From positions 73,431 through 137,430 of the forward strand of contig ONCO01000002.1 of NCBI GenBank assembly GCA_900316365.1: a DNA stretch of 64,000 nt. Direction: 5' to 3'. Below the pieces are notes generated by a model. That model saw only the letters and a program-made list of their open reading frames with translations. It was not told where the DNA came from and searched no databases. Made by a program: the position numbers and the translations under genes. Origin of the DNA: an uncultured Erysipelotrichaceae bacterium (lineage in GTDB: Bacteria; Bacillota_I; Bacilli_A; RFN20; CAG-826). Positions 5,243 to 10,878 of this stretch are shown one piece after another. Every line of letters begins with the position of its first letter. Position 1 is the stretch's first letter.

Positions 5243-6517
5243 TTATTTGTTGTTGGCAAGAATGAATTCCTGGATCTTTCTGTTGGTGATGTTGCTCTTG
5301 AGCTGGTCAAGCTGTGGCTCGATCGCCTTTTTGATTTCTTCAGGCTTCATCTTGTAGTTCTCGGCCATCTTGGCGATTTCGGCATCGACATCCTCATCGG
5401 TGGCGGTGAGTTTCTCGTTGCGGCCAATGGTCTGGAGAACGAAGAATTCGGTAAGGTTCTTGCGGCAATCGTCAGCGAGCTTCTTGCGGAAGTCCTCGAT
5501 CTTTTCGCCGGTGATTTCGAGATACTGTTCGAAGGTGAGACCCTGGGACTCGATTCTCTTCTTCATGTTCTCTTCCTGTTCCTTGGCTTCGCCTGCGACG
5601 ATTTCGTCGGCGATTTCGATCTTCGCACCAGCGACGATCTGATCAAGGATGGCGGAGAAATAGGCGCGTTCGGCATCGTTGACCTTAGCGGCAAGGATGT
5701 CGGCCTTGTTCTTTTCCTTCAAGGCTTCGACGGTTTCGACGCCGGCGATGCCGAGGTCTTTGACCGCTTCGTCATTGAGTTCTGGGATCTTGCGTTCCTT
5801 GATCTCGTGGACTTTGCACTTGAAGAGGGCGTCTTTGGAAGCGAGTTCCTTGACGTAGTTCTCTGGGAAGGTGATGCGGACGTCCTTCTTTTCGCCGGTC
5901 TTGACGCCGACTAAGGCTTCTTCAAAGCCTGGGACGAAGCTATGGGAGCCGAGCTCTAAGGCATAGTTGTCGGCTTTGCCGCCTTCGAAGGCCTTGCCAT
6001 CGACATAACCTTCGAAGTCGATGACGACGGTGTCGCCCATCTTGGCTTCGCGGTCGACGACTTCAAGGGTCGCAGCGCCTTTGAGCTGGTTCTGGATGCG
6101 CTCCTCGACTTCCTTATCGGAAACGGATGGAGCTTCTTTCTTGGCGGTTAAGCCTTTGTACTCGCCGAGCTTGACGCTTGGCATGACGGAGACGGTGAAT
6201 TCGACTTCGAGTTCTTCGTCGCTTAACTTAGTGACGGTGATGGCTGGCTGGCCGTATGGCTGAACGTCAGCTTCACGGATGGCTTTGCCATAGAGCAAAG
6301 GGAGAATCTGGTTGATAGCTTCGTCGAAGATCTTGTTTGGATCGATCTTGCCGCGGAGCATGGATTCTGGGTATTTGCCTGGGCGGAAGCCGTCGACCTT
6401 AACCTTGGTCGCTAATTTGTGGAAAGCCTTTTCCTGGGCGTTCTTCCAATCTTCTTTGATCGCAGCGGTCTTGAAGGAAACTTTTCCTTCGGCCACTTTC
6501 TTAAATTTTTCTGCCAT
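5243..6517 (-). CDS. tig: Trigger factor (peptidyl-prolyl isomerase chaperone)
   Basis: Ribosome-bound folding chaperone of 424 residues (usual 430). The N-terminal ribosome-docking domain carries the GFRPGKYPESML signature near residue 44. An FKBP-type PPIase domain follows (about 150-240, with VVIDFEGYVDGKAFEGG), then the helical C-terminal cradle. AGAGG lies about 10 bases ahead of the ATG at 6517. It has its own promoter and terminator. clpX does not follow it, which differs from the common tig-clpX-lon order. Confidence 0.97.
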   Translation of the reverse strand: MAEKFKKVAEGKVSFKTAAIKEDWKNAQEKAFHKLATKVKVDGFRPGKYPESMLRGKIDPNKIFDEAINQILPLLYGKAIREADVQPYGQPAITVTKLSDEELEVEFTVSVMPSVKLGEYKGLTAKKEAPSVSDKEVEERIQNQLKGAATLEVVDREAKMGDTVVIDFEGYVDGKAFEGGKADNYALELGSHSFVPGFEEALVGVKTGEKKDVRITFPENYVKELASKDALFKCKVHEIKERKIPELNDEAVKDLGIAGVETVEALKEKNKADILAAKVNDAERAYFSAILDQIVAGAKIEIADEIVAGEAKEQEENMKKRIESQGLTFEQYLEITGEKIEDFRKKLADDCRKNLTEFFVLQTIGRNEKLTATDEDVDAEIAKMAENYKMKPEEIKKAIEPQLDQLKSNITNRKIQEFILANNK

Positions 6518-6551
6518 TAGTAAAAACCTCTAATACTTTGTAGCGAGACAA

Positions 6552-6580
6552 AATATACCCTATCTAAAGATAGTTCTCAA
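6552..6580 (-). promoter_or_regulatory. Promoter of tig
   Basis: TTGAGA (complement 6575-6580), 17 bp, TATATT (complement 6552-6557), about 35 bases before the tig start. Confidence 0.75.
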
Positions 6581-6583
6581 ATA

Positions 6584-6618
6584 AAAACGACCATTTGGGG
6601 TTAATAAATGATCGTTTT
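6584..6618 (-). terminator. Terminator of the 6635-7543 gene
   Basis: Minus-strand stem AAACGATCATTT paired with AAATGGTCGTTT (one G-T pair), followed by T-rich sequence. Confidence 0.85.
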
Positions 6619-6634
6619 GTGGAATATGTAGGTT

Positions 6635-7543
6635 TTAGAAGGCGACAGACTCGCTCTTTTCGAGGTCGTTTTCGATGCTCTCGCTGAGTTTTTTGGCCTT
6701 CTCTTCGTCGATGCCAGAAATAAGTAACTCCGCCGCGGCGCCTAAATATTTGGCGGCCAAGAGCAAATAAGCGGCCGCGTTAAGCTTAAGGTCTTCTTCC
6801 CCTGTCTCAGGGTAGATAGCCAAGACCTCGTTATCATATAGCGATTTGGCGGCCTGGATAATCGAGGTGTTCTTAGAGCCGCCTTCGATAAAGGAGAGAG
6901 TCTTCTTATAGGTTTCGTTAACGAAAGGGGCCTCCAAAGCGCTTGGGATGAGCTTATATTCCTTTTCGCGTTTAACGAAGGTGATTTCCTTCTCGTCTTT
7001 GGCCTGAACCAAAAGTAAGAGAGCGAAGGTTCTAAGGGAATCGTTACGGTCGCTGGAGACGATGCTTCGAATCTCGCTTAGATATTTGGAAGGATCGGCT
7101 TCGACTTTGCTTAAAAGCTGGAGCAGCATGAAATCGTCTTTGGTGGTCAGAAGTTTTTCCTTAAGTTCCTCTGGCTCCATCTTTTCGTAATGGAAGGCCG
7201 CTCTTTCGTTCGCGCGGATATAGCCATTTAAACCACGGAGTACCTCTTCGACTTCCTGCGAGACATAAGGCCTATTCTCGAAATCCTTCATGTCCTCATA
7301 CGCTTCATCGAACTCTTTGAGGGCGAAACGGATCTCAAAGGTCGATTTCATGGTCAAAACCGGGTTATCGGCCCAAAGGATATCGCGGTTGGATAAAAGG
7401 ATATCCAAGGCCTTTTTGCCGTCATTTAAGGCTAAATATGCAGAGGCGCTATAGAAGAGGGATTCTGGGTCCTTCTTGCCTTTCGCCTCTTCAAGGAGAG
7501 AGAGGTATTCCTTCTTCTCCATCAGTTCTTTGTAATTGCTCAT
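6635..7543 (-). CDS. Helical-repeat (TPR-like) cytoplasmic protein, unknown function
   Basis: 302 residues without signal peptide or membrane segment. The whole chain is helical with TPR-like spacing (YKELMEKKEYLSLLEEAKG, then SASAYLALNDGKKALDILLS near residue 32-50). It probably mediates protein contacts, but I recognise no named family. It is monocistronic, with its own terminator downstream. The start at 7543 has no Shine-Dalgarno; instead TACAAT lies six bases upstream, predicting a leaderless message. Confidence 0.8.
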   Translation of the reverse strand: MSNYKELMEKKEYLSLLEEAKGKKDPESLFYSASAYLALNDGKKALDILLSNRDILWADNPVLTMKSTFEIRFALKEFDEAYEDMKDFENRPYVSQEVEEVLRGLNGYIRANERAAFHYEKMEPEELKEKLLTTKDDFMLLQLLSKVEADPSKYLSEIRSIVSSDRNDSLRTFALLLLVQAKDEKEITFVKREKEYKLIPSALEAPFVNETYKKTLSFIEGGSKNTSIIQAAKSLYDNEVLAIYPETGEEDLKLNAAAYLLLAAKYLGAAAELLISGIDEEKAKKLSESIENDLEKSESVAF

Positions 7544-7549
7544 GGGGTA

Positions 7550-7555
7550 ATTGTA
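7550..7555 (-). promoter_or_regulatory. -10 box, leaderless start of the TPR-like gene
   Basis: TACAAT on the minus strand, then exactly 6 nt, then the ATG. The transcription start would coincide with the start codon. No good -35 is visible at 17 bp. Confidence 0.55.
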
Positions 7556-7573
7556 TGCCTAAAGGCAGTTAAC

Positions 7574-7597
7574 AAAAAGGGCGAGCTAGGCCCGCCC
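7574..7597 (-). terminator. Terminator of the acetylesterase gene
   Basis: Minus-strand GGGCG-N9-CGCCC stem followed by TTTTT. Confidence 0.88.
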
Positions 7598-7616
7598 TGA
7601 GAAAGTTGGATTGCTC

Positions 7617-8687
7617 TTAGATTAAGAGGTCATTATCCAAGATGATGTCAGCAAAGGCATTGCCGAGTTTCATCATCGAATCCATCGAATAATGGTACTG
7701 ATCGCCGTTTTCCTGCTGGTCAAGCTGGAGGCCAAGGCCGGTAGCAACGGTCGTATCGATGAGGAAGTTGTTATCAGATTCTTCGCTCACGGCGCGTTTG
7801 GAGTCGTTGAGGATGGTGTGGTTCTTCCATTGGGTGTTCGGGCCATCATAGATGAGAGCATCGATGAAGGCGATGTTATCTCCATCTTCTTTGAAGGCGT
7901 AGGAAGCGAAGTCATTGCGGAAGGTCTCGACCATCTTGGATTCGAAGGTCGCATAATCAGCGGCGGATTGCGCGGTATCGGAGTCGGTCTCGCCCTGCAT
8001 CCAAAGGAAGCCGCGGATGACCGGCTGCTTGCCGGTGTCCTCAATGAGCTTTAAGCAGTTTTCGGTGTACTGCTTCAATTCGTCGTAAAGGGTTTTGGTG
8101 CCTTCTTCTTCGACGCCGTCGGCGGCGGTATGCCAGGTAAGGTGCATTCCTTTCTGCTTGTCGTTATTCTGGGATTTGAAGCCAGAGCCGGAGATCGCGT
8201 CTTTGATGAGATAGATCGGCTTATCTTCATTCGCGTGTTCTTCCAAGACGTCGGCGATACCGAGTTCTGGGCCGATGCAGGAATTATTTAAGCCCTGGCC
8301 TGCTTTGGTGTTGACGAATCTGCCAGAGAGCTTGTCGCTTCCGGTGCTTGAGGTATATGGGTTGATGGAGCCGCCGTACGGATAATATCCGTAATAGCTA
8401 TGCTGGATGAATTCAAAGCCGGTGGTATTGAATTTGTTGTAATCCTTCTCGTTCGCGGTGCACCAATTCTTGAGGTAATTGGTGTTGCCACCATACATTG
8501 GGGTGATTCTGGTATTGCCCTGCATGTTGGACTGGCCGGCCATAACGAAGACAGGCACCATGTTGGAGGTGTCGATAACCTCTTCTTCGCTGGAAGCTGG
8601 GGCAACGCTTGGGGCTGGCTTAGCAACGCAAGAGGCTAAACCCAATAAAGAGGTCGCCGCTAAAAATAAGAAATTACGATTTTTCAT
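7617..8687 (-). CDS. Lipoprotein of the sialate O-acetylesterase (SASA, PF03629) family
   Basis: 356 residues. The N-terminus is a lipoprotein signal peptide with lipobox LASC (Cys near residue 20) and then a Ser/Pro/Glu-rich linker, so the enzyme is tethered outside the cell. The SGNH-like block VMAGQSNMQGN near residue 50 supplies the nucleophile Ser. FLWMQGETDSD near residue 230 is the family's second signature, and the YHYS segment near residue 333 may supply the catalytic His. Such enzymes remove acetyl groups from sialic acid or plant polysaccharides; the substrate cannot be told here. It is a single-gene unit with SD AGAGGA and a terminator. It may act with the extracellular GH3 locus at 16-20.6 kb. 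Confidence 0.88.
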   Translation of the reverse strand: MKNRNFLFLAATSLLGLASCVAKPAPSVAPASSEEEVIDTSNMVPVFVMAGQSNMQGNTRITPMYGGNTNYLKNWCTANEKDYNKFNTTGFEFIQHSYYGYYPYGGSINPYTSSTGSDKLSGRFVNTKAGQGLNNSCIGPELGIADVLEEHANEDKPIYLIKDAISGSGFKSQNNDKQKGMHLTWHTAADGVEEEGTKTLYDELKQYTENCLKLIEDTGKQPVIRGFLWMQGETDSDTAQSAADYATFESKMVETFRNDFASYAFKEDGDNIAFIDALIYDGPNTQWKNHTILNDSKRAVSEESDNNFLIDTTVATGLGLQLDQQENGDQYHYSMDSMMKLGNAFADIILDNDLLI

Positions 8688-8772
8688 TTATGATTCCTCT
8701 GATACGTTTTTACTTTAGGTAGAGGGAGGGATATCCCCTAGGACAAATATGCTAAAAACAGCGGACAATTCG

Positions 8773-9321
8773 CTACTTCAGGAAGCCTAATTGTTTCTTT
8801 AGGTCATCCCTAATAAGCGGGATCTCCGCTTTGGCTTTCTTGTTCTTGGTTCTTTCTAAGGCCGCTTCCATAAGGGCCAAAGAAAGGGTATTCGCGTAAT
8901 ATTCGATCGGAGACAGCATCTTTTCATCGCCTTTACCGAGGGATTTGTATTCCTTATCGATCCTCTTTAACACCTCATATTTAGGCGAGGAAGCAAGGAT
9001 GAAATGGCTTGATTCATGGACCAGCGAAATGAATAAAAGACCAGGCTTAGAATAGATGCCTTTTGGGAGGGTCAGAACGCCCTCCTCCAACATATACGGC
9101 GCTTCATTTTCTTCCCCGGCGGTGAGCTTAAGTTTCTTGTGTAATGCCTGCCCTAAAGCGTCCATCCAGGCCTTCACGTAAAAACGCCTGGTTAAAGGAT
9201 TCAAGGAGAACGCCTGAGCAAGCAAATCCAAAGGCATAGAAAGGCATAAGCCTTCGAACTCCTCGATGTCGGATTTTTGCTTTTCTTTTAGTTTAATAAA
9301 ATCGTTTAAAGTTTCGACCAT
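8773..9321 (-). CDS. HExxH-motif protein (putative zincin), unknown family
   Basis: 182 residues, no signal peptide, mostly helical with a Lys/Glu-rich N-terminal coiled stretch. The motif HESSH near residue 102 fits the zinc-protease HExxH pattern, preceded by hydrophobic LLFISLV as in metallopeptidase active-site helices. SPIEYYANTLSLALMEAAL about 35 residues later could provide the third ligand (Glu). It lies 11 bp after the kinase-like gene on the same strand and is probably co-transcribed. A weak AAGG precedes the ATG. The HExxH match alone does not prove catalysis. Confidence 0.65.
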   Translation of the reverse strand: MVETLNDFIKLKEKQKSDIEEFEGLCLSMPLDLLAQAFSLNPLTRRFYVKAWMDALGQALHKKLKLTAGEENEAPYMLEEGVLTLPKGIYSKPGLLFISLVHESSHFILASSPKYEVLKRIDKEYKSLGKGDEKMLSPIEYYANTLSLALMEAALERTKNKKAKAEIPLIRDDLKKQLGFLK

Positions 9322-9332
9322 ATCTTACCTTT

Positions 9333-10508
9333 TTAGCATTTATCGTATGAACGTTTACCTTCGGGATAATAGCAATCATCCACGAAGCTCTTGATGTAAC
9401 TTTTGCCATGATTCCCCATCAATTCCTCGCGTAGATCATCGATGGTCCAATCCGCCTCTTTCTTAAGGAAATTAGGGTTAGCTTTCTTGCTCTTTTCGAG
9501 GGCGGATTTTACCTTGGCTAACCTCTTAAGTAGAGCCTTCATTTCGTCTTCGTTAAGGAGGTCATTAAGAGGTTCTAAATCCTTCTCTTCGATGGTCTGT
9601 AAACGATTGGCAAAATCTTCATCCACTCCAACAAGATTTAAGGCGCCGTCTTCGTTGATTAACGGGGCCACTCCTAAAGGAAGTTTCTGGAAATAGGAGA
9701 GTTGCGAGAAAGCAGATGGGGAATCATTGTCATAGCTTCTGATTCCGACAAATAGTCCTCCTTCGTTTCTTACAACGTGATAGTTATTCGGGGTATGGTC
9801 TTTGTCTCCGCAGATGGCGTCAAAGATAGCTAAAGAAGACATGTCCTTTAATAACAATGGAGAAGTCTTGGCCAGGCGTTCTCTTGGGGTTAATTTGCAG
9901 ATGCTCTCCCCCATCACTTCGCTAGAAAGGATGCCATAACGGATCTTGCAGGCAAGTTTCATCTTCACGAACTCTACCTTTGGTAGGGCGTAATCAAAGC
10001 CGAGGAGTTTAGCCATAAAATCTTCTCCTAAAGAACGAATCGCCCCAAAGGTTTCTAACTCCTTATTGTTCGCGTAAATATTCATGCGTTGGGCCCTGAT
10101 CTCCGCGGAAACGAAGAAGACTAAAGGCCTAAATATATCTTTCTCCTCATCTATGTCTTTAAAACCAAGAATGGTCGGATCGTTGCTTTCGAGATAGCGA
10201 TTAAAGAGGGAGCCTTCTTCGGCTTTATTGCCCAAAGAGAAGAACTTTTCCCTGACGTGGTTATATTGAAGGGCAGCTAAAACCCTATCCTTGATTAAGG
10301 ACTTAGGTTCGACGCCGTCGAAGAATTCCTTCGCCGCCCTATCGAGAGTCTCGTCTAGGGATAGATGCTCTTTGCTTTCTTTGAAGTAATAGACTCCTTC
10401 TGGAGAGGTGATCCTCACCACGTTATTGGTGTAGCCCAAAATATGCTCAAGCTTAACGACAGGAAAAGACGTTAAAACGGCGACCGTTTTCATATCTCGA
10501 CACTTCAT
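9333..10508 (-). CDS. Putative kinase-fold protein (HipA/PI-kinase-like motifs)
   Basis: 391 residues, cytoplasmic. I do not recognise the family, but the order of motifs resembles the atypical kinase fold of HipA and PI3/4-kinases. It has GVYYFKES near residue 38 (candidate ATP-binding Lys), a hinge-like ILSSEVMGE near residue 196, CGDKDHTPNNYHV near residue 235 (catalytic-loop Asp-His with following Asn), and RSYDNDSPSAF near residue 258 (metal-binding DxD). A Lys-rich helical tail follows. The ATG at 10508 has AATAAT six bases upstream, consistent with leaderless transcription. It is paired with the HExxH gene downstream, close to the 3' end of tRNA-Arg. The substrate is unknown. Confidence 0.6.
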   Translation of the reverse strand: MKCRDMKTVAVLTSFPVVKLEHILGYTNNVVRITSPEGVYYFKESKEHLSLDETLDRAAKEFFDGVEPKSLIKDRVLAALQYNHVREKFFSLGNKAEEGSLFNRYLESNDPTILGFKDIDEEKDIFRPLVFFVSAEIRAQRMNIYANNKELETFGAIRSLGEDFMAKLLGFDYALPKVEFVKMKLACKIRYGILSSEVMGESICKLTPRERLAKTSPLLLKDMSSLAIFDAICGDKDHTPNNYHVVRNEGGLFVGIRSYDNDSPSAFSQLSYFQKLPLGVAPLINEDGALNLVGVDEDFANRLQTIEEKDLEPLNDLLNEDEMKALLKRLAKVKSALEKSKKANPNFLKKEADWTIDDLREELMGNHGKSYIKSFVDDCYYPEGKRSYDKC

Positions 10509-10766
10509 ACCTCTATTATTAACGCTTTTCGCGCGTTAGGAATACTTTTTTGCTATTTTCTAAGATGGCAGCCCTTCATAAGATAACGGGCAAGCGAATA
10601 ATCATCGCTACAAATGGCGATACATCAAACGTAATTGGTAGTTTTACATCCATCAACTATCACTATTTTTTCTAGACAGTAGCGTACCAATTGACTATTT
10701 ATTCGTATTCATTTAGAGTGGAGTTAGAAGTTTCAACAACATAGAGAGGCTAACCTTTAAGCCAAA
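10509..10766. other. AT-rich intergenic region, no gene seen
   Basis: Between the kinase-like gene and the tRNA terminator. It holds no convincing ORF. It contains an inverted repeat of about 8 bp (TAATTGGTA near 10630 and TACCAATT near 10685) and a small hairpin ATCGC-N8-GCGAT at 10604-10621. It is more AT-rich than the neighbouring genes. Confidence 0.5.
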
Positions 10767-10790
10767 CAAAAAACCCAGGAAATCCTGGGC
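10767..10790 (-). terminator. Terminator downstream of tRNA-Arg
   Basis: Minus-strand CCCAGGA-TT-TCCTGGG followed by T6 (complement 10768-10773). Confidence 0.95.
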
Positions 10791-10801
10791 ATTTTTATCG
10801 A

Positions 10802-10878
10802 TGGCGCGCTCGAGGCGATTCGAACGCCTGACCTACGGCTTAGAAGGCAGTTGCTCTATCCAGCTGAGCTACGAGCGC
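10802..10878 (-). tRNA. tRNA-Arg(TCT)
   Basis: 77 nt with encoded CCA. The acceptor stem GCGCTCG/CGAGCGC is perfect, with discriminator G and then CCA at complement 10802-10804. The D-arm has GCTCAGCTGGATAGAGC, the anticodon loop is CTTCTAA (anticodon TCT, reading AGA/AGG), and the T-arm holds GTTCGAATC. It has its own promoter and terminator. Confidence 0.98.

What the first reader, a model, noticed from the sequence alone, without database searches (positions are those of the whole stretch)
8773..10508. Unrecognised kinase-fold plus HExxH gene pair beside tRNA-Arg
The 391-residue protein shows motifs in the order expected for a HipA/PI-kinase-like fold (Lys in GVYYFKES, CGDKDHTPNN catalytic loop, DND metal site). 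The 182-residue neighbour 11 bp downstream carries HESSH after a hydrophobic helix. Neither belongs to a family I can name. A modifying kinase coupled with a small protease near a tRNA 3' end resembles an accessory regulatory, toxin-like or defence module, and it is the best candidate in the window for an undescribed two-gene system.
Basis: partly seen in the sequence, partly recalled or inferred. Interest (0 to 1): 0.62.

Follow-up and report, generated by a model that had tools for sequence, protein, structure and literature searches.

The report
Rare kinase–zinc-peptidase gene pair
Two adjacent genes in an uncultured gut-type bacterium encode a very divergent kinase-like protein and a small probable zinc peptidase; the same pair recurs in only one other genome of the order, so it looks like a rare accessory module, not a housekeeping one, with a function still to be found.

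Summary
At 8773-10508 (minus strand) lie two real genes 11 bp apart: KIN (391 aa) and ZN (182 aa, HESSH). Neither matches Pfam, NCBIfam, PHROGs, PADLOC or the PDB significantly. Among 279 genomes of the order each occurs in only two, and they are the same two: this one and rumen MAG RUG11821 (same genus; 29% and 35% identical). There they form a tight operon, KIN–DUF92–ZN, at a different chromosomal site, so the pairing is conserved, though in two loci only.

The kinase fold is supported indirectly. The KIN profile matches 784-945 aa proteins that hit PF00454 (PI3/PI4 kinase) and Fam20C weakly; across six sequences the predicted catalytic D237, N242, D260 and D262 are 4 of 12 invariant columns. 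The AlphaFold model is poor (pLDDT 43), so the fold is not shown. ZN's model (pLDDT 70) is closest to IrrE/PprI, with a conserved third-ligand candidate, E140; suggestive, not significant.

The pair sits in a variable gap beside tRNA-Arg, an integration site in relatives. Best reading: a cytosolic kinase plus regulatory peptidase in an accessory (toxin-like or defence-like) module. Its biological role is inferred, not shown.

The parts
9333..10508 (-). KIN, 391 aa, divergent PI3/PI4-kinase/Fam20-like atypical kinase (putative); K43, D237, N242, D260, D262 predicted catalytic/metal residues
   Evidence: ORF; homologue in G011 (E 4.7e-35); profile match to PF00454-like proteins; invariant catalytic columns
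8773..9321 (-). ZN, 182 aa, putative gluzincin-type zinc peptidase, HESSH 102-106, third-ligand candidate E140 (SPIEYYAN)
   Evidence: ORF; homologue in G011 (E 4.3e-12; HExxH and E140 conserved); AF2 model pLDDT 69.6; best PDB match PprI/IrrE 8slm, prob 0.95, E 0.18
9322..9332 (-). 11-bp intergenic spacer AAAGGTAAGAT with RBS-like AAAGGT: co-transcription likely
10802..10878 (-). tRNA-Arg(TCT), upstream boundary of the variable site
   Evidence: ARAGORN; integrase genes next to the same tRNA in relatives
10773..10790 (-). intrinsic-terminator-like hairpin after tRNA-Arg, separating it from KIN
   Evidence: consensus match only
7617..8687 (-). SASA-type carbohydrate esterase (PF03629); other cargo of the same variable interval, not clearly part of the pair
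   Evidence: not found between tRNA-Arg and TPR in the relatives examined

Best explanation
An accessory two-gene operon. KIN is a cytosolic, very divergent kinase-fold phosphotransferase of the PI3/PI4-kinase/Fam20/HipA kind. ZN is a small cytosolic zinc peptidase of the IrrE/ImmA kind. The most likely mechanism is that KIN modifies a cellular target (probably a protein) and that ZN, activated by a stress or invasion signal, cuts KIN itself or a regulator or target tied to it, making the pair a switchable regulatory, toxin-like or defence-like module. Shown: two real, adjacent, co-occurring genes with conserved putative catalytic residues, at a variable site. Inferred: kinase chemistry, peptidase chemistry, their functional link and the biological role.
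For: KIN and ZN occur in only 2 of 279 genomes of the order, the same two, on the same strand and in the same order: KIN then ZN here; KIN, DUF92, ZN in G011, with an 18-bp gap and a 4-bp overlap. The two sites differ: uvrC/tRNA-Arg here, rex-adjacent in G011, where uvrC is on another contig. hhalign of the KIN pair against the PF00454-like proteins gives prob 97.3, P 1.6e-11; one of those passes the PF00454 cut-off (27.3 vs 27.1 bits) and all four scanned hit Fam20C weakly. In the six-sequence alignment D237, N242, D260 and D262 are among 12 invariant columns (chance about 2.5e-6 for at least 4 of 5 named residues). The combined profile's best PDB matches are PI4K type 2 (E 0.008-0.04) and FAM20A. 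ZN: HExxH, S137-Y141 and E140 conserved; best fold match PprI/IrrE. The interval carries different cargo in relatives, including an integrase. The G011 contig also carries matches to two PADLOC candidate defence families, PDC-S02 and PDC-M42B, 3-4 kb beyond KIN.
Against: The KIN AlphaFold model is unreliable (pLDDT 42.9) and its fold search uninformative. The ZN fold match is not significant (E 0.18), Pfam M78 does not detect ZN, and profile alignment to M78 covers only the 17-residue HExxH helix. There is no Xre-type repressor gene beside the pair, as would be expected for ImmA- or CapP-type peptidases. Only one independent second locus exists, so 'conserved pair' rests on n = 2. Nothing in the window itself shows defence or toxicity.
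Confidence: 0.42

Rival explanations
1. Lipid or polyprenol-linked enzyme module: KIN phosphorylates a lipid or isoprenoid-type substrate (PI-kinase-like), working with DUF92 and UppS-like proteins, and ZN is an accessory peptidase.
For: In G011 a 491-aa membrane protein with DUF92 (E 6e-39) is inside the operon between KIN and ZN, and a UppS-like prenyltransferase lies about 2 kb away.
Against: No DUF92 or UppS relative of these in this window, and G000 lacks DUF5685, the neighbour in G011. The window pair works, if it works, without DUF92 next door. DUF92 elsewhere in G000 was not searched.
Confidence: 0.15
2. KIN keeps the kinase fold but is a non-phosphorylating enzyme (AMPylase) or a pseudokinase scaffold for ZN.
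For: H238 of the catalytic loop becomes F in the homologue, and K43 is not aligned to Lys in the larger relatives. SelO and SidJ show that the fold can do other chemistry (established knowledge).
Against: D237, N242, D260 and D262 are invariant in all six sequences and K43 in both KIN homologues.
Confidence: 0.18
3. A chance pair: two unrelated orphan genes that landed together at a tRNA hot spot.
For: The interval is a cargo site, and both genes are rare.
Against: Same two of 279 genomes, same order and strand, at different loci after divergence to 29-35% identity.
Confidence: 0.08
4. A HipBA-type toxin-antitoxin: KIN is a HipA-like toxin kinase and ZN its antitoxin.
For: Two tightly spaced small genes at a variable site, and a kinase-like catalytic loop.
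Against: No match to HipA_C or any HipA model in Pfam or NCBIfam; the partner is a putative peptidase, not an HTH protein.
Confidence: 0.1

Closest known systems
PI3/PI4-kinase-like and Fam20-like atypical kinases of bacteria (PF00454, PF06702; SCO1664 family TIGR03843)
   Same: Order of motifs: D-x4-N catalytic loop followed by a DxD metal site; transitive profile link
   Different: No direct significant match of KIN itself; small stand-alone protein paired with ZN
HipA kinases / HipBA and HipBST modules
   Same: Small operon with a kinase-type catalytic loop
   Different: No HipA_C match; no HTH antitoxin or HipS partner
IrrE/PprI and ImmA (peptidase M78, COG2856)
   Same: HExxH helix plus downstream E..AN-like third-ligand motif; best PDB fold match 8slm; small cytosolic protein. 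COG2856 peptidases are described as partners of Xre regulators in mobile stress modules (PMC2701414)
   Different: Below Pfam M78 detection; no Xre-type partner; the partner is a putative kinase

Membership tests
Kinase fold, PI3/PI4-kinase-like (PF00454 clan) | Catalytic Asp and Asn (D-x4-N) and metal-binding Asp conserved in homologues | tested here: met
   D237, N242, D260, D262 invariant in six sequences
Kinase fold, PI3/PI4-kinase-like (PF00454 clan) | Direct match to the family profile | tested here: not met
   KIN and its homologue have no PF00454 hit; only the larger relatives do
Kinase fold, PI3/PI4-kinase-like (PF00454 clan) | Bilobal kinase structure | tested here: inconclusive
   Model pLDDT 42.9, pTM 0.35; strand/helix order compatible, no significant fold match
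HipA | HipA_C domain and HipB-type HTH partner | tested here: not met
   No HipA match in Pfam/NCBIfam; the partner is ZN, without any family match
Peptidase M78 / IrrE-ImmA (COG2856) | HExxH plus third ligand Glu in E..A[ND] | tested here: met
   HESSH...E140YYAN here; HELSH...EYMTD in the homologue, so E kept, A/N replaced by T/D. Motif only; zinc binding not tested
Peptidase M78 / IrrE-ImmA (COG2856) | Match to PF06114 profile | tested here: not met
   No hit at E up to 10; none in G000 by genome search
Peptidase M78 / IrrE-ImmA (COG2856) | IrrE-like fold | tested here: inconclusive
   Top match 8slm, prob 0.95 but E 0.18, TM 0.41
Peptidase M78 / IrrE-ImmA (COG2856) | Associated Xre-type repressor substrate | tested here: not met
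   Window neighbours are SASA, TPR and uvrC; in G011 the operon holds DUF92, and the nearest regulator is rex, a core gene. A repressor elsewhere in the genome is not excluded
Known anti-phage defence system | Match to PADLOC models | tested here: not met
   Only a 44-residue weak match of KIN to PDC-M03A, E 0.027

The most novel reading that the evidence does not exclude
An undescribed two-gene (sometimes three-gene) anti-phage or stress system in which a PI-kinase-like enzyme and an IrrE-like zinc peptidase act together, the peptidase sensing the signal and releasing or removing the kinase.
Probability: 0.2. Interest if true: 0.68.

Novelty: new variant of a known kind. Interest (0 to 1): 0.42.

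Why it matters
Bacterial kinase-fold proteins outside the classical families keep turning out to be toxins, effectors and defence enzymes, and IrrE/ImmA peptidases are switches of stress and mobile-element responses. A module that joins the two without an HTH repressor would be a new control logic, and KIN would add a kinase family that current profiles miss. The case rests on two loci, so it matters mainly as a well-defined candidate for a test.

Tried and rejected
Direct family searches (Pfam, NCBIfam, PHROGs, PADLOC, PDB) gave nothing significant for KIN or ZN. Weak hits such as spectrin, Imm3, MobP3 and a Salmonella phage tail match of the G011 ZN cover coil or non-catalytic parts and were dismissed. 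Scans of viral contigs found no relative; plasmid records had none for KIN or ZN, and phage records none for the window's own proteins. Two genome-contig scans returned only RUG11821; they depend on short patterns, so distant relatives can be missed. Class and phylum samples (about 390 genomes each) added only a weak partial match of KIN in G568. Direct repeats of the tRNA 3' end (attL/attR) of 12 bases or more were sought in the window: none. HipA membership was rejected for lack of any profile match. The rSAM/DUF5685/UppS genes next to the G011 operon were considered as part of the system and set aside because G000 has no DUF5685. Fold search of the KIN model listed Bud32, Rio2, PI3K and mTOR among many non-kinases, all non-significant; not used as evidence.

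Full report
What is there. Two minus-strand genes lie at 8773-10508: KIN (9333-10508, 391 aa) then ZN (8773-9321, 182 aa), 11 bp apart with an RBS-like AAAGGT in the spacer. The start of KIN is not settled: the RBS-like AGAGG abuts the first ATG, and a second ATG follows at codon 6. tRNA-Arg(TCT) is at 10802-10878 on the same strand, with a terminator-like hairpin between it and KIN. Neither protein has a likely membrane span.

Are they a unit? Searches of all 279 genomes held for the order found full-length KIN matches only in this genome and G011, and ZN matches only in the same two. G011's contig is the record CACYCS010000113.1, MAG RUG11821, titled uncultured Erysipelotrichaceae bacterium. 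There the order is KIN, DUF92, ZN on one strand, with an 18-bp gap and a 4-bp overlap. Identity is 29% for KIN and 35% for ZN. The contig is short (9.8 kb) and G011 is listed with 6% contamination, but its only rex gene, on this contig, is 59-64% identical to rex of several genus members including G000, so the contig most likely belongs to the genus. The two loci lie in different surroundings: in G011 the uvrC–tRNA-Arg–TPR–Tig–Lon region is on another contig and has no pair. This is good evidence of linkage, from two loci only.

Site. In the relatives the arrangement uvrC–tRNA-Arg–(variable)–TPR–Tig–Lon is widely kept. G016 has only about 0.8 kb in the gap; many have an acyltransferase gene; G010 has a phage-type integrase, and G014 an integrase fragment, beside this tRNA. 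The window has a SASA esterase, ZN and KIN there. GC of KIN and ZN (0.44) is below the window mean (0.49) but close to uvrC and mutS2 (0.46), so it is weak evidence of foreign origin. No attachment repeats were found.

KIN. No direct match to any family library or the PDB. A two-sequence KIN profile finds, in five genomes of the family, proteins of 784-945 aa (E 8.7e-12 to 1.2e-5), over the hinge-to-C-lobe part. Those carry GNVDRHxGN and GIDND; one reaches the PF00454 cut-off (27.3 bits) and the others are below it, with weak Fam20C hits. Profile against profile gives probability 97.3, P 1.6e-11 over 179 columns. In the joint alignment only 12 columns are invariant and four of them are D237, N242, D260 and D262; the chance figure of 2.5e-6 is rough, because the alignment was centred on the part where these residues lie. 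K43 is kept in the true homologue but is not aligned to Lys in the large relatives. The combined profile's best PDB matches are PI4K type 2 and FAM20A, at borderline E-values. The AlphaFold model, from two sequences, is poor. Kinase fold: likely. Enzymatic activity: inferred.

ZN. HESSH and the motif SPIEY are conserved, giving candidate ligands H102, H106 and E140 and the general base E103. The model (pLDDT 69.6) has the order helices, three strands, HExxH helix, E140 helix. Its best PDB match is Deinococcus PprI/IrrE (prob 0.95, E 0.18); IrrE 3dte and jannalysin are further down. Profile comparison with 17 M78-type sequences of the order aligns only the HExxH helix, and Pfam M78 does not detect ZN. 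I call it a putative gluzincin that may work like IrrE/ImmA, not a member of M78.

Mechanism. COG2856 peptidases cut Xre-type repressors in mobile stress modules (PMC2701414), and HipA kinases arrest growth by phosphorylating a translation component (PMC9758233). Here the peptidase has a kinase-like partner and no Xre-type gene beside it. The most likely logic is that KIN modifies a target and ZN controls KIN or that target by cleavage. This is inference. The lipid-kinase rival is kept because of DUF92 inside the G011 operon. Candidate defence genes (PDC-S02, PDC-M42B) on the G011 contig are weak support for a defence setting.

Verdict.

Noticed in passing
L005 (G011:C113) 5552-8301: Divergent DUF5685, radical SAM/SPASM (near dynobactin and sulfatase maturases) and UppS-like genes next to the KIN-DUF92-ZN operon; possibly an unrelated peptide or isoprenoid cluster.
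   Followed up: partly
L008-L012: Family of 784-945 aa proteins with a PI3/PI4-kinase-like core (CGNVDRHxGN, GIDND) in several genera of the family, near or above the PF00454 cut-off, unnamed in NCBIfam.
   Followed up: partly
window 7543-10802 and L018-L036: The gap between tRNA-Arg(TCT) and the TPR-Tig-Lon block is a cargo hot spot in the genus: acyltransferases, an MFS transporter, HTH genes, an integrase element in G010.
   Followed up: partly
L005 8454-9800: Genes matching candidate defence families PDC-M42B (E 1e-9) and PDC-S02/YhcG nuclease (E 1e-83) at the end of the G011 contig.
   Followed up: no
L028 7130-7420: 96-aa protein in the same hot spot of G024 with a leader-like stretch ending in ELTEEQLTEVNGGG, reminiscent of double-glycine (Nif11-type) peptide precursors.
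   Followed up: no
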